From positions 59,235,914 through 59,299,913 of the forward strand of contig JALMGJ010000002.1 in NCBI GenBank assembly GCA_023362775.1: a stretch of 64,000 bases of DNA. The letters are read 5' to 3'. Below, one piece after another: positions 47,448 to 54,133 of this stretch (position 1 is the first letter of the stretch; the number at the start of each line of letters is the position of its first letter). The notes under the pieces were generated by a model, which saw nothing but the letters and a program-made list of their open reading frames with translations, was not told the DNA's origin and did not search any database. The DNA comes from Charina bottae. Lineage: Eukaryota > Chordata > Lepidosauria > Squamata > Charinaidae. Made by a program: the position numbers and the translations under genes.

Positions 47448-49580
47448 TTTTATCCTGCCTTTATTATTTTTATAAATAAATCAAGGCAGGGAACATACCT
47501 ATTACTCCTTCCTCCTCCTCTTTTCCCCACAACCACCACCCTGTGAGGTGAGTTGGGCTGAGAGAAAGTGACTGGGCCAAGGTCACCCAGTCAGCTTTCA
47601 TGCCTCAGGCGGGACTAGAACTCAAAGTCCCCTGGTTTCTAGCCTGGTACCTTAACCACTAGACCAGGGGTCAGCAAACTTTTTTTGCCGGGAGCCATTT
47701 TGACATGCTCGTGCACATTTTGAAGTGCTTGAGAGCCAGGGGGCGGGGTTTGTGGGCGGGGGCCAATCGCGTGGAAGGGGGCGGGGTTTGCGGGCGGGAA
47801 CCAATCGCGTGGAAGGGCGGGGGGCTCACGGAGGGAGGGGGTGCAGCCAGCGGCTCCGCGCAGCCAGCGGCTCCGCGAACCTGGCCCGGCCGCCCCACCG
47901 GGAGTGGTGGAGAAACAGCTGCCACCCTCCGCTCCCCAGAATATCGTGGGGCAAAGGGAAACCTGCCCGGAGGGGTCATCAGGAGCACAGGATCCGGCCC
48001 CAGCCCAGCCCGGCCCGCAGCTTTGGCGCCCTCCCCTTGCCATCGCGAAAGTCCCAGGCGACTGCGGCCCAGGAATCCTGCCGCAGATGGGAAACCCAGC
48101 CTGCTCTCTCCACCCGCTTCCCACGCTCTCCACTCCCCAGAATATCGTGGGGTATTCTGGGGAGCGGAGAGCGTGGGAAGCGGGTGGGGAGAGCAGGCTG
48201 GGTTTCCCATCTGCGGCAGGATCCCCGGGCCGCACATCCTCCGCCACCGCCGCGGCCAAGAAGGCGAGAAGGGGAAAGGCCTTCGCCAGCGTGTGACGTC
48301 AAGGGCGGCACGCGGCGCGGCACCCTCCCGCCCCATCAATCCCCCCACCCCGCCATTCGGCGTCCCAGGCTCTTCACCCTGCGCCGCCCTGCCGCTCGCG
48401 TCCCGGGATGCAGCGCTGTCGGAGGCGGCGCAGGAGCGGCTGCAGGGGCAACGTGTGTGCGTGAGAGTCAGCTCCGGGGGTTGCGGGGAGGGGGAGGCTG
48501 TGTTTCCCCCCTTTGGGTTGCAAACGGCCTTGCATGTGGGATCAGGCCCACATGCAAGGCCGTTTGCAACCCAAAGGGGGGAAACACAGCCTCCCCCTCC
48601 CCGCAACCCCCGGAGCTGACTCTCACGCGCCGCGTCCTGGGCCGCGTTTCAAAAAAAAAAAAAAGCGTTTTGGCTTTGATCAGGTTGCGGGGAGGGGGAG
48701 GCTGTGTTTCCCCCCTTTGGGTTGCAAACGGCCTTGCATGTGGGCCTGATCAAAGCCAAAACGCTTTTTTTTTTTTGAAACGCGGCCCAGGACGCGGTGC
48801 TGTCGGAGGCGGCGCAGGAGCGGCTGCAGGGGCTGCTGTGGCTGGAGATGGTGCTGCTCCGCGGCATCCAGGTGCTGGGCGAGGGCGCGGGCCCGGGACG
48901 CGAGCGGCAGGGCGGCGCAGGGCGCCTGGCTGGGGCAGTGGCGGCGGGGGGATGGAGCCGGCGGAGGTTTGCCGGGCGGCAGGACGGGGCGGGCGGCGCT
49001 GCTGGCGGAGCTGGAGGGAGCAGAGGGACCAGGCGTTCCCATGGGCGCAGCGTGCGCTCTGCAACCCGCCTTGGAGAAGCCGCCGCGGGAGGCCCTCTGG
49101 GTGCACCCTCCTGCCCCATCAATCCCCCCACCCCGCCGTTCGGCTTCCTCTCCCCCCGCTAACCCGAGCCCTGCGGTGGCCGGGGGAGCCGAGCCAGGCT
49201 TGGACCAGAGGCGGCCAAGGGGAGAGCAGGCGGCTCTTCGCCCTGCACCGCCCTGCCGCTCGCGTCCCGGGCCCGCGCCCTTGCCCAGCACCTGGATGCC
49301 GCGGAGCAGCGCCATCTCCAGCCGCAGCAGCCCCTGCAGCCACTCCTGCGCCGCCTCTGACAGCGCCGCGTCCCGGGCCAGCAGCGCCTCCCTGCCGTGC
49401 CGGGCCTCGCTCAGTGCAAGAGCCAGGGGGCGGGGTTTGCGGGCGGGGGCCAATCGCGTGGAAGGGGCGGGGGTGAGTTCAGCTGCGGAAGAGCCACACT
49501 CAAGAGGCCAAAGAGCCGCATCTGGCTCGCGAGCCGCCATTTCCGACCCTTGTACTAGACCAAACTGGATCAGGATAATG
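47448..49580 (-). mobile_element. SINE2 copy split by a 1.9-kb hAT element
   Basis: Minus-strand SINE2. The body runs 47448-47656 (complement includes 'gggtgacc', 'gactttgagttctagtcccg', 'ggtaccaggctagaaacc'). The head resumes after the insert at 49552-49580 (complement 'gatccagtttggtctagta'). The insertion point lies in the head, close to where another hAT hit the copy at 6891. Confidence 0.82.
47665..49551. mobile_element. GC-rich non-autonomous hAT element built of nested palindromes
   Basis: 1887 bp with ends CAGGGGTCAGCAAACT and, inverted, CAAGGGTCGGAAATGG. 8-bp duplications cactagac and tactagac (47657-47664, 49552-49559) fit hAT. Subterminal blocks 'ggggcggggtttgcgggcgg' plus 'ccaatcgcgtggaag' occur twice on the left and once on the right. 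The interior holds at least four inverted repeats: about 48069-48140 with 48155-48226; 48466-48537 with 48546-48620; 48632-48684 with 48744-48797; and 48796-48926 with 49239-49370. No hAT transposase motif is seen. The long open frames on both strands follow from GC-rich, stop-poor sequence and mirror each other across the palindromes, so I do not call them genes. Confidence 0.88.
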
Positions 49581-50156: not shown

Positions 50157-50189
50157 AATATTTTAAATATGTTCAGCGTCACTACGAAC
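50157..50189 (+). repeat. 33-bp direct repeat, left copy
   Basis: Host L2 sequence beginning AATATTTTAAATATG and ending CACTACGAAC, directly followed by the first base of the copia 5' LTR. The identical sequence is at 53916-53948. Confidence 0.98.
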
Positions 50190-50863
50190 TGTTAAGGATA
50201 TTTGGTTAAAGCATTCTATGCAGAATTAAACGCATGGCATTTCTTCCACTATGTCTGGCCAGAGAGTGGAAAAGTACAAGTTACAAGTGAAAACAAACAT
50301 TGTTGTCCGCATTGAAAGTTTGGTTCTCAAAACATCTGAGACGTAGATGGCAGATGTTGAGATGTAGATGTCCCTCTAGCTAGACATAATAAACTTTTAT
50401 CACGAATGTTCTCAAAACAACTGTAGCCCGAGGAAAGGCCAATACACAACACTGCCATCGTGTGACGCTGTATAGTAAGTACAATTACTACCAAAATGCT
50501 ATACAGAAAGAGATGCCCATGTTTGAACCAATCAAATGTGAGCTATGAACCATGGGTATTCCTTCATACTTATGTTCTCACTTATGTTCTTTACATATGC
50601 CTTCTGTTCTATATGTAGACTGCTATCTACATGTACTTGTATCTGAACTGTAACCATGCCTGGTCTTTGCACAGACCATGATGTTTTTCTTTCCTCACTT
50701 CTGGTGATGGAACTCTGCTTATGCTTTGATTTTACCTTTTTGCAATAATGCACTATACATCCATTATTGCCTTATGCTATCAATAAAGATATTGTTAGAC
50801 TTACAACACGTTGTTTGGATTACTTCAAGCCTGAAACCCCGCATAGTTAACCATCACCTAACA
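50190..50863 (+). mobile_element. 5' LTR of Ty1/copia element
   Basis: 674 bp starting TGTTAAGGATATT and ending ACCTAACA, so TG...CA termini. The polyadenylation signal AATAAA is at about 50782. It is immediately followed by a primer-binding-site-like sequence. No matching LTR exists downstream, so LTR-LTR divergence cannot date it. The start is fixed by the adjoining direct repeat and the end by the primer site. Confidence 0.8.
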
Positions 50864-50881
50864 GGTTATGGTGGCCCAGAG
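50864..50881 (+). promoter_or_regulatory. Primer-binding site, half initiator-tRNA-Met type
   Basis: GGTTATGGTGGCCCAGAG directly after the LTR. Drosophila copia uses GGTTATGGGCCCAG, complementary to the anticodon-arm region of initiator tRNA-Met. Here the same string carries two extra bases (TG) in the middle. The location and similarity support minus-strand priming by an internal tRNA fragment. Confidence 0.65.
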
Positions 50882-50984
50882 AGAATTTTGCGTTTTCTTT
50901 GCTGCGCTGGATCTAGCTGTAACAACTGGGTTTGTTTTTAAGGCTGCATTTTGAAGTAAACGTGTTTTTCTTTGAGTGGTCAGC

Positions 50985-53900
50985 ATGGCTGCTGCTGCTG
51001 GGCTAACCAGTCTGCCCTTTGAGCGTTTGAATGGCACAAACTATCGGACCTGGTGTGTGAAGATCAAGTCTTTCTTCCTAAAAGAAGGTTTGTGGAAGTA
51101 TGTGAAAGACCCACCTCCAGCCGGTGCTATTACTGCAGAAGTGCAGTTGTGTTTGGATCGTGCTTATGGCAATTTGATTCTGGGACTAGAATCATCACAG
51201 CTACTGCATATCAGTAATTTGGAGACTGCACATGCCTGTTGGGAAGCTCTTAAAGCCCTTTATTCCAAGCAAACCTCTGCTGCCATTGTTGGTATCTCAC
51301 GTCAGCTTTACAACTTGAAGCTACAGCCCGGTGGAAACGTGATGACCCACCTCCATAAAGTCAAGACTTTGTTTCTTGAACTTGAGGACCGGGATGTTGT
51401 GATCCCTGATACCCAGAGAGCTTGTATCATCCTGTCAAGCTTGGACAAGAGCTTTGACATGCTCATCGAGGCAACTCAGACGTTGAGGCCCCAAGACCTA
51501 ACTGTGGATTATCTTACAAATCGGCTGCAAGAAATCCAGCAAGCTCGTGATTTGGAGAAGATGCAGAGTAAGTCATCTGTTGCTGTTCCTGAGGCTTCAG
51601 CTCAGCGTTATCCAGTTGGAACAGAGGCTGCGTGTGCTGTGAGGAGATGTTTCCGGTGCAACTCGACCCAACACTTCATGAGAGACTGTCCCCAGCCACC
51701 TCGCCCAGCCGGTGGAGCCAGTGGAAAGAGGTTCGTGCGAAAGAAGGGGAAACAAGCGCCTAGACAACGTACCCAGGTGTCTGCTTTGCTCACGGCTGTG
51801 AGTAGACGTTCCCCAGAGACTTGGCTTTTGGACTCAGCCTGTAGTCAAATCATTGTCAACAATGAACAGTTGTTGTTATCAAAAAGCAAGCCTAAAGTCC
51901 AACAGGTTGCTCTGGCTGATGGATCTATGGCTGATGTGTCCTTTCAGGGTGAAGTATACATTCCTTGTTTGGGGATAAATATGCAAAATGTGTTGTGTGT
52001 ACCTACACTTGACTTTTCCCTCCTTAGCGTTCCAGCCCTGGTAAAGTCTGGTTATACTGTTGTGTTCAAGGGTACTGGATGTTCTATTGAAAAAGATGGG
52101 ATAGAATGTGCTAGGGGGAAGTTAGTGAATCAATTGTATGAAATGCTTCCTAAGCAGGGGATTGTGTCAGGAAATTGTATTTCCAATGTTCCCCCACATA
52201 ACAAATGCATTCACTATTATCACAGAGTTCTGGGACATCCCGGGTGGGGACGTTTGTCCCAACTGGCCAAGGTGTATCCTGAGTTAGGATCCAAAAAGTG
52301 TGATGACTTTCTTGATTGTACTGTGTGCAAACAATCTAAAATTAAGGCTGCTCCTGTTGCTAGAAAAAGTGACCGAGTATCAACTAGGCCTTTTCAGTTG
52401 GTTCATGGAGACTTAGCCGGCCCCAATGCTCCTAGTGAAGGGGGGGCGCGTTTCATGTTCCTTTTGGTAGATGACCATACTCGCTATACGTTTTGTTATT
52501 TGCTCAAATCTAAAGCGGAGGCTTTTGCTCGCTTTAAGGAGTTTGTTGCAATGGTGGAGAGACACTATGGCTATCAAGTAGGTCAATTTCAATCGGATTG
52601 TGGAGGAGTGTTTCTAGGCGAGTTTCAGAATTGGCTTCGTAGAAAAGGAATCTCCCATAGACTTGCCAATGTTGGTGTTCCTGCTGAGAATGGAATAGCT
52701 GAAAGGAAGATTGGTGTTGTTAATACCATTAGAAATAGCCTGATGTTAGATGCCCAGGTGCCAGCCTGTTTTTGGGGTGAGGCTACCATGACTGCAGTGT
52801 ATCTGACTAATAGGGTGTGGAATTCAGCTGTGAATGAAGTTCCTTATTTCCTTTTGTTTGGCAAGCGCCCTTCGCTGAAGCATCTGCGTGTTTTTGGAAC
52901 ATTTGCATATGTGCATATTCCTAAGTCTCAGCGAAGGAAGAACCAGCCAAAAGCACAACGCTTAAGGTTTGTTGGTTATTCATCTAGATCTAAGGGTTAC
53001 CGTTTTTCTGCAGGCTATGGTCGTGTGGTAGTCTCCAGAAGTGCTAATTTTGAGCACCCTACTGGTTGGGATAGGTTGAATGCTAGTTCAGAGGTATTGT
53101 TGCAATCTAGTGTACAGCCAACTGTCCATGCTCCTGTGGCTGGACAACAACCAGTTCAGCTGCCTTCTGGTTCCCAGTCTCCTAGTGTGGTGAGAGGATC
53201 CCCTCAGGTGAAGGAAGAGGAAATTTCACCTGAGCAGGTTCAGGATCTGAAGGGGGATTCAGGTAGTGAAAAGGCAGAGGACAGTGATGAGGAAGAGGCA
53301 GTGGTAATTCCTCGTAGGTCTGCACGCTCCACAAAGGGTGTGAAGCCTGACAGATTTGTGATTCAGCAGGTGAGAGTGTGTCAGATTACCTGTGAACCCG
53401 TGTCTTTCCAGGAGATGTTGCTTCTGCCTGTTGAAGAGCAAGAGAAGTGGAACACAGCGATGGATAAGGAGTTTGAGGCATTAGTGAGTCAAAAGGTGTT
53501 TGAGGTCACTGATTTGCCCCCATCCCAGAAAGCTGTTGGTTCCAGATGGGTTTTCAGAAAGAAGCTTCTTCCTGATAATACAGTGCAGTACAAAGCCAGG
53601 CTTGTTGCTCAGGGATTTGCACAGGAGAGGTTTTTGAACTATGATCTCACATATGCACCCACAGCTAGACCAGAGTCTTTACGTATGGTACTTTCTCTGG
53701 CTGCACAGCGTGGACTTGTTGTCCATCATTTTGATGTTGACACAGCATATTTGAATGCAGAGCTCCCTGAAACTGTGTACATGAAGCAGGCTCCTGGCTA
53801 TGCTTGTGACAATTCTCAAAAGGTGTACAGACTGCGCAAGGCGCTGTACGGATTGAAGCAGGCCGGACGTTGTTGGCATCAATGTTTAGATAAGGCTTTG

Positions 53901-54035
53901 TTAGAGCTAAAGTTTAATATTTTAAATATGTTCAGCGTCACTACGAACCACCTGCCACTTGGTTTTAATTTAAATTTATATTTATTGTATTTGTATTTTA
54001 TTGTGTTTTACAGTATTTTAGTGATATTTTTATAG
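50985..54035 (+). CDS. Ty1/copia gag-pol polyprotein, truncated in RT
   Basis: The single open frame gives 1016 aa from the ATG at 50985; an upstream GTG is in frame but is not a normal start. Domains in order: Gag N-terminus (FERLNGTNYRTW..KIK, about 12-30) and Gag core to about 190; CCHC zinc knuckle CFRCNSTQHFMRDC at 222-235; protease with LDSACS around D283, where copia proteases usually have DSGA; GAG-pre-integrase HHCC with H410, C445 and C448; integrase with D476, D538 and E573 (D-x34-E, ending AENGIAER); RT from about 820 with SRWVFRKK and the first aspartates in FDVDTAYLNAEL (D917, D919). Copia sequence stops at about residue 977, before YVDD; RNase H and the 3' LTR are absent. The last 39 or so residues translate host L2 DNA. 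No stop or frameshift occurs in the remaining frame, so the insertion looks recent. It cannot retrotranspose by itself. Confidence 0.92.
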   Translation: MAAAAGLTSLPFERLNGTNYRTWCVKIKSFFLKEGLWKYVKDPPPAGAITAEVQLCLDRAYGNLILGLESSQLLHISNLETAHACWEALKALYSKQTSAAIVGISRQLYNLKLQPGGNVMTHLHKVKTLFLELEDRDVVIPDTQRACIILSSLDKSFDMLIEATQTLRPQDLTVDYLTNRLQEIQQARDLEKMQSKSSVAVPEASAQRYPVGTEAACAVRRCFRCNSTQHFMRDCPQPPRPAGGASGKRFVRKKGKQAPRQRTQVSALLTAVSRRSPETWLLDSACSQIIVNNEQLLLSKSKPKVQQVALADGSMADVSFQGEVYIPCLGINMQNVLCVPTLDFSLLSVPALVKSGYTVVFKGTGCSIEKDGIECARGKLVNQLYEMLPKQGIVSGNCISNVPPHNKCIHYYHRVLGHPGWGRLSQLAKVYPELGSKKCDDFLDCTVCKQSKIKAAPVARKSDRVSTRPFQLVHGDLAGPNAPSEGGARFMFLLVDDHTRYTFCYLLKSKAEAFARFKEFVAMVERHYGYQVGQFQSDCGGVFLGEFQNWLRRKGISHRLANVGVPAENGIAERKIGVVNTIRNSLMLDAQVPACFWGEATMTAVYLTNRVWNSAVNEVPYFLLFGKRPSLKHLRVFGTFAYVHIPKSQRRKNQPKAQRLRFVGYSSRSKGYRFSAGYGRVVVSRSANFEHPTGWDRLNASSEVLLQSSVQPTVHAPVAGQQPVQLPSGSQSPSVVRGSPQVKEEEISPEQVQDLKGDSGSEKAEDSDEEEAVVIPRRSARSTKGVKPDRFVIQQVRVCQITCEPVSFQEMLLLPVEEQEKWNTAMDKEFEALVSQKVFEVTDLPPSQKAVGSRWVFRKKLLPDNTVQYKARLVAQGFAQERFLNYDLTYAPTARPESLRMVLSLAAQRGLVVHHFDVDTAYLNAELPETVYMKQAPGYACDNSQKVYRLRKALYGLKQAGRCWHQCLDKALLELKFNILNMFSVTTNHLPLGFNLNLYLLYLYFIVFYSILVIFL
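53916..53948 (+). repeat. 33-bp direct repeat, right copy
   Basis: Identical to 50157-50189. It joins the broken RT sequence (ending ELKF) to the L2 3' UTR, which then continues with CACCTGCC. The junction is inside the open frame. Confidence 0.98.
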
Positions 54036-54133
54036 CTGCGAACTGCCCAGAGTCCCTCCTTGAGGGGGAGATGGGCGGTCATAGAAATTTAATAACTAAC
54101 TAACTAACTAGCTAACTAACTAACTAACTAACC

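What the first reader, a model, noticed from the sequence alone, without database searches (positions are those of the whole stretch)
50157..53948. Copia element with intact 5' LTR, broken RT end and a 33-bp target repeat
The 5' LTR begins exactly where a 33-bp host L2 sequence ends. The other end is not an LTR but a break inside RT, followed at once by the same 33 bp (50157-50189 = 53916-53948, no mismatches) and then the L2 continuation. Copia integrases normally leave about 5 bp. The structure fits one-ended integrase joining of an incomplete cDNA with repair by template switching about 28 bp upstream, or capture of cDNA at a widely staggered break. A simple deletion of a full element does not explain the second 33-bp copy.
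Basis: partly seen in the sequence, partly recalled or inferred. Interest (0 to 1): 0.75.

Follow-up and report, generated by a model that had tools for sequence, protein, structure and literature searches.

The report
Half-inserted copia retrotransposon with target duplication
A jumping gene (a copia retrotransposon) was probably fastened properly at one end only, and the cell seems to have mended the other, broken end by copying nearby DNA; a second copy in the same genome bears the same kind of scar, and the accident resembles one known from retroviruses.

Summary
A Ty1/copia element (50190-53915) has an exact 674-bp 5' LTR, is cut off inside reverse transcriptase, and has the same 33 bp of host repeat at both junctions (31-33 bp; two bases are shared with the element). 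Of 19 siblings with both flanks held, 18 have the normal 5-bp duplication. 29 of 29 other copies run through the break. A second copy, C1:50419139-50425108, has an exact 5' LTR, no 3' LTR, and a 583/583-identical duplication of host DNA found nowhere else at full length. Of 100 listed 5' junctions, 92 have a second LTR, two are nested and unresolved, one is broken at both ends, and five lost the 3' LTR: two with long duplications, three with none found. Best explanation: one-ended integrase joining, then host repair synthesis from the element's free 3' end, as described for HIV and avian retroviruses (PMC5041404); a HERV-K provirus of similar structure is published (PMC5488345). A new member of a known kind. 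That the cDNA's plus strand was unfinished is my inference. Exchange with the empty allele, or an assembly error, is not excluded.

The parts
   Evidence: aligns at 92% to paralog L172 straight across the joined site
50157..50189 (+). first copy of the 33-bp host duplication; its last 5 bp (CGAAC) would be the normal target duplication (inference)
   Evidence: 5-bp rule
50190..50863 (+). complete 5' LTR, 674 bp, TG...CA
50864..50881 (+). primer-binding-site region (label recalled); the two extra bases (TG) relative to L007 are common in the family
50985..53915 (+). open gag-pol frame: Retrotran_gag_2, gag_pre-integrs (below its cut-off), rve integrase, SH3, RVT_2 cut at profile position 143 of 244; the frame stays open to 54035 inside the host repeat
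53915..53917 (+). break point inside reverse transcriptase, with 2-bp microhomology (AA at 53916-53917)
53916..53948 (+). second copy of the 33-bp host duplication, joined to the broken element end
53949..54107 (+). right host flank, continuation of the same interspersed repeat

Best explanation
It is a one-ended (aberrant) retrotransposon integration. Integrase joined only the 5' LTR end of a copia cDNA to the target. The other end, with no usable 3' LTR, was left free. Its 3'-OH, which is the plus strand ending inside RT, paired over about 2 bases with host DNA about 33 bp upstream of the join. A host polymerase extended it through the target and into the right flank, which duplicated 33 bp instead of 5, and the ends were then joined. 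The same happened with 583 bp in another copy. Shown: exact LTR end, truncated other end, long duplication ending at the LTR, 5-bp rule in siblings, a second independent case. Inferred: the order of steps, the host polymerase, and that the cDNA was incomplete before joining. An unfinished plus strand would give a finished double-stranded 5' LTR and an unfinished 3' end.
For: Exact LTR end and 33-bp repeat. 5-bp duplications in 18 of 19 checked copies. The break is private to this copy among those held. Second case: L060/L061/L074, exact 5' LTR, element ends 43-46 bp before where the 3' LTR would start, 583/583-bp duplication, and that 583-bp sequence was found at full length only at these two places. 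Its element differs from the window copy by about 3%, so it is a separate event. Short homology (AA) at the window junction and about 5 bp of filler at the other. PMC5041404 (Discussion; passages) describes one normal junction, an often truncated other end, most commonly a host duplication that is usually much longer than 5 bp and can reach hundreds or thousands of bp, and usually a short homology at the aberrant end.
Against: A 2-bp overlap is weak evidence for priming, and the second case shows no clear homology. Three of the five copies that keep an intact 5' LTR but lost the 3' LTR (L064, L019, L159) show no host duplication: none in about 4.9-5.3 kb of right flank held. For L159 the first roughly 190 bp after the primer site were not held, but the last 19 bp of its left flank occur once in the genome. 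These three may be host deletions, an outcome PMC5041404 also reports, or later deletions. No empty allele, related species or reads were available. The plus-strand idea predicts a polarity that the data cannot test: 0 of 4 tested 5'-truncated copies had duplications in the flanks held, too few to conclude.
Confidence: 0.66

Rival explanations
1. A complete element inserted normally with a 5-bp duplication. Later, while the site was still heterozygous, a break in the element was repaired by switching to the empty homologue or sister 28 bp (or 578 bp) upstream of the insertion and copying onward, which deleted the 3' part and restored host sequence.
For: It gives exactly the same final structure. 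The duplications are identical (33/33 and 583/583), as expected of young events, though one-step insertion predicts the same.
Against: It needs a second event within the heterozygous life of the insertion, twice in 100 listed junctions. The one-step process is experimentally documented in retroviruses (PMC5041404).
Confidence: 0.15
2. Assembly artefact: a contig of the inserted haplotype ending inside the element was joined to a contig of the empty haplotype that begins upstream of the site, making a false duplication.
For: It produces the same structure and would leave identical copies; no reads were available to check.
Against: There are no N in the window or in the pieces held of the second case, and only 2 bp are shared at the window join, so chimeric reads would be needed. 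A similar locus in human (6p25.2) has its pre-integration allele determined by PCR (PMC5488345, passages and Discussion).
Confidence: 0.1
3. The host repeat already carried a local tandem duplication; a full element inserted in the first unit and a plain deletion then ran from RT into the second unit.
For: A comparable model (insertion in one of two duplicated regions, then deletion) is one of those discussed for the HERV-K 6p25.2 locus in PMC5488345.
Against: No tandem 33-mer is seen in the 100 listed rows other than the window pair, and the one paralog read has a single copy. For the second case it would need an independent tandem repeat of at least 583 bp of DNA otherwise not found at full length.
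Confidence: 0.06
4. cDNA captured at a host double-strand break with wide 5' overhangs, without integrase.
For: Fill-in of a 33-nt stagger would give a 33-bp duplication. HERV-K insertions tied to break repair are described in PMC3625200 (passages).
Against: Both cases start at the exact LTR terminus, which break repair alone need not give. A 583-nt stagger is implausible. The four non-classical insertions in PMC3625200 lack target duplications, delete target DNA and are truncated at both ends.
Confidence: 0.03

Closest known systems
Aberrant one-ended HIV-1 and avian retrovirus (ASLV) integrations, Hughes laboratory (PMC5041404: abstract, passages, whole Discussion read)
   Same: One correct LTR junction, often truncated other end, large host duplication instead of 5 bp, usually short homology at the bad junction.
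   Different: Those are cell infections with drugs, integrase mutants or mutated viral ends; here it is a copia retrotransposon in a genome assembly with no known trigger.
HERV-K(HML-2) truncated provirus at human 6p25.2 with a 111-bp target duplication (PMC5488345: passages and Discussion read)
   Same: A natural inherited element, 3' LTR missing, long duplication on both sides.
   Different: A retrovirus; the authors discuss rearrangement models and leave the question open. Here there are two cases in one copia family, one in DNA that is mostly unique, and normal siblings for comparison.
Ty1/copia LTR retrotransposons
   Same: The element itself is an ordinary copia: gag, integrase before RT, 5-bp target duplication in siblings.
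   Different: This copy lacks the 3' end and has a 31-33-bp duplication.
Non-classical HERV-K insertions at breaks (PMC3625200, passages read)
   Same: Host repair takes part in the insertion.
   Different: Truncated at both ends, with target deletion and no classical duplication.

Membership tests
Ty1/copia LTR retrotransposon | RVT_2-type reverse transcriptase and copia-type gag | tested here: met
   RVT_2 E 5e-48, Retrotran_gag_2 E 4.2e-23
Ty1/copia LTR retrotransposon | integrase encoded before reverse transcriptase | tested here: met
   rve at residues 467-564, RVT_2 at 837-977
Ty1/copia LTR retrotransposon | two LTRs and a 5-bp target duplication in siblings | tested here: met
   18 of 19 checked copies (8 with two LTRs, 11 solo LTRs) have exactly 5 bp; one solo LTR has none
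Ty1/copia LTR retrotransposon | primer-binding site pairing with the inner part of initiator-Met tRNA (recalled) | not tested
   the sequence after the LTR resembles the recalled motif; no tRNA comparison was made
One-ended aberrant integration | one LTR end joined precisely | tested here: met
   LTR starts at 50190 as in siblings; second case
One-ended aberrant integration | other element end truncated or non-standard | tested here: met
One-ended aberrant integration | host duplication much longer than the family's normal one, ending at the good LTR | tested here: met
   33 bp and 583 bp against 5 bp
One-ended aberrant integration | short homology at the aberrant junction | tested here: inconclusive
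   2 bp in the window; about 5 bp of filler in the second case
One-ended aberrant integration | formed in one step during integration | not testable with these tools
   no reads, alleles or relatives held; one search states that the genome has no relatives here

The most novel reading that the evidence does not exclude
Copia cDNAs with an unfinished plus strand are a regular integration substrate. Integrase docks the finished 5' LTR end alone, and the unfinished plus-strand 3' end primes on host DNA. LTR retrotransposons would thereby make 5'-LTR-bearing, 3'-truncated copies bracketed by host duplications of tens to hundreds of bp, as a steady and so far uncounted source of inherited duplications (2 of 100 listed junctions here).
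Probability: 0.25. Interest if true: 0.62.

Novelty: new member of a known kind. Interest (0 to 1): 0.45.

Why it matters
In the papers I read, one-ended integration with long host duplications comes from retroviral infections crippled by drugs or mutations. Natural cases in a retrotransposon family with hundreds of similar copies would let its rate, polarity and repair signatures be counted. They would also suggest that a long target duplication with a missing LTR can be a type of insertion and not only a later rearrangement.

Tried and rejected
The two extra bases in the primer-binding site (50864-50881), first thought a sign of faulty strand transfer, are common in the family: 173 places within one mismatch, the 100 listed rows all exact. 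Dropped.

A LINE-type (target-primed) origin of the duplication was rejected. The insert begins at the U3 end of the LTR, which is not the 5' end of the RNA, and there is no poly(A) at either junction (sequence; retrovirology recalled).

Ectopic exchange with another copy of the host repeat was considered because the 33-mer exists exactly at 12 other places. It cannot explain the second case, whose 583-bp sequence was not found elsewhere at full length.

Mirror class (3' LTR kept, 5' end lost): of 43 unpaired 3' LTRs, 39 were screened at the expected 5' end. Thirty-one showed element sequence there (in L106 and L107 the LTR start itself was not seen) and 8 were followed further. Of those 8, L114 has a 5' LTR, and L118 has a 5-bp duplication with most of its 5' LTR deleted. 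L122, L123, L124 and L127 are 5'-truncated and showed no duplication in the flanks held (0.5-1.3 kb left, about 0.34-0.36 kb right). L125 and L126 could not be judged. Four of the 43 were not screened.

Copies left out of the duplication count: L015, L022 and L066 had an end that was not found or was broken and are not among the 19 checked.

PMC12786077 (passages) describes integrase-independent insertion by recombination at homologous sites; it does not fit a host repeat without element homology.

Unanswered calls (not completed): 6, 7, 9, 15, 17, 19, 21, 23, 26, 27, 28, 30, 33, 38, 43, 45, 47, 54, 57, 59, 62, 77, 79, 81, 84, 85, 88, 91, 93, 94, 96, 99, 102, 105. Most were repeated unchanged until answered. 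The LTR-start pattern and the host-flank search were given up.
Full report
WHAT IS THERE. A copia element occupies 50190-53915. Its protein has copia gag, integrase and the first part of RVT_2, with integrase before RT. The frame is open from the gag ATG to the break and on into the host repeat to 54035. The LTR is 674 bp; the end was defined by comparing the two LTRs of a sibling, which differ only after position 674. The 33 bp before the LTR are repeated without mismatch directly after the break. Siblings continue AAGAAGTC at the break, so two bases are ambiguous and the duplication is 31-33 bp. The missing part is 1101 bp plus the 3' LTR, measured on L006.

CONTROLS. (a) 18 of 19 sibling copies with both flanks in hand have exactly 5 bp of target duplication; one solo LTR (L018) has none. 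(b) 29 of 29 other loci in RT run through the break. (c) The joined flanks align without a gap at the joint to one paralog of the host repeat, 462 of 503 columns identical. (d) The 33-mer has 158 places with up to 3 mismatches, 14 exact including the window pair; in the 100 listed rows no other pair lies closer than about 28 kb (read by eye). The commonest listed form (52 of 100 rows) differs by one base (G for A) from the form shared by both window copies. That fits a local copy but does not prove it, because 12 other loci have the window form.

SURVEY FOR OTHER CASES. I listed exact LTR/primer-site junctions (100 listed of 371 with up to 2 mismatches) and exact tract/3' LTR junctions (100 listed of 743). 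In the stretch covered by both lists, 57 of 64 5' junctions pair with a 3' LTR within 15 kb (pairing by strand and distance could hide a neighbour's LTR). The 7 unpaired were read (L016, the other six). L068 and L070 are complete, L016 and L062 have internal deletions with normal duplications, L066 is broken at both ends, L064 lost its 3' part without a duplication, and L060 is a second case. Of the other 36 junctions, 1 was read whole (L072, complete), 31 were probed at the expected 3' end, 2 pair, and 2 are the window copy and L019. Of the 31, 25 have a 3' LTR start there (24 by exact motif, L142 by alignment), 3 have a second LTR after internal deletions (L139, L144, L152), 2 carry nested insertions and were followed only partly (L145, L156), and 1 ends within about 190 bp of the primer site (L159). 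In total for the 100: 92 with a second LTR, 2 nested and unresolved, 1 broken at both ends, and 5 that keep the 5' LTR and have lost the 3' LTR. Two of those five have long duplications (window and L060). Three have none found: L064 and L019 over 4.9 and about 5.1 kb of right flank, and L159 over 5.3 kb in two pieces. For L159 the first stretch after the primer site was not held, but the last 19 bp of its left flank occur only once in the genome.

THE SECOND CASE. At C1:50419139-50425108 host DNA of 583 bp precedes an exact 5' LTR. The element runs to 43-46 bp before the place of the 3' LTR, losing the presumed polypurine tract (label recalled). After about 5 filler bases the same 583 bp follow with no difference, and then the host continues. 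A whole-genome search finds the 583-bp sequence at full length only at these two places. The other matches cover only a short repeat within its last roughly 90 bp (40 of 484 candidates were scored). So a largely unique target was duplicated locally. Its element is about 97% identical to the window copy, so it is a separate event.

MECHANISM. In PMC5041404 (abstract, passages and the whole Discussion read) HIV proviruses made under partial integrase failure mostly have one normal junction, an often truncated other end and, most commonly, a host duplication that is usually much longer than 5 bp. The authors propose that the free viral 3' end primes a host polymerase on nearby DNA, usually over a short homology, and that homologous recombination then joins it to the chromosome: on one side this gives a duplication, on the other a deletion. 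The two copia copies match the duplication outcome, and the three truncated copies without duplication could be the deletion outcome (untested). When the 5' LTR end is the one joined, the free 3' end is the plus strand at the truncated side, which is the side observed. My added inference is that the defect was an unfinished plus strand, because such a molecule has a complete double-stranded 5' LTR and no double-stranded 3' LTR; this rests on the textbook order of reverse transcription (recalled).

WHAT IS NOT EXCLUDED. Exchange of a full-length insertion with the empty allele gives the same sequence, and so does a false join of two haplotypes in the assembly. Neither can be tested without reads or other individuals. 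The pre-existing-tandem model survives for the window but is strained by the second case.

NOVELTY. PMC5488345 (passages and Discussion read) reports a HERV-K provirus at 6p25.2 without a 3' LTR and with a 111-bp duplication, and other HERV-K loci with estimated duplications of 13-450 bp; it discusses rearrangement models and gives no final answer. The kind is therefore known. What is added here is a copia retrotransposon, two cases in one family, a largely unique target, and a normal-sibling baseline. The rows listed by my paper searches showed no copia case by title or start of abstract. They cover only open-licence PubMed Central and are no proof of absence.

The distance to the missing 3' LTR is 43-46 bp. 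The 35 sibling contexts at the break are 34 copies. The gap in the L159 test is now stated and was checked by one more search.

Noticed in passing
C1:50419139-50425108 of the same genome (L074, L060, L061): Second copia copy with intact 5' LTR, no polypurine tract or 3' LTR, and a 583-bp perfect host duplication not found elsewhere at full length.
   Followed up: yes
window 48459-48776: GC-rich stretch with nested, near-perfect inverted repeats (82-bp arms at 100% with a 6-bp spacer; 69-bp and 32-bp arms), upstream of the copia locus; it could fold into large hairpins or be an assembly fold-back.
   Followed up: no
L064 (C1:160130500-160133300) and L066 (C1:215976900-215979700): Two copies break at almost the same element position (1778 and 1779) and continue into different sequence; coincidence or a fragile point.
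   Followed up: no
L124 (C1:141632163-141634163): A copy whose 5' end lies inside the primer-binding site, with no 5' LTR and an internal deletion; possible product of cDNA that failed the second strand transfer.
   Followed up: partly
L018 (C110:27029200-27031400): Solo LTR without any target duplication, the single exception among 19 checked.
   Followed up: no
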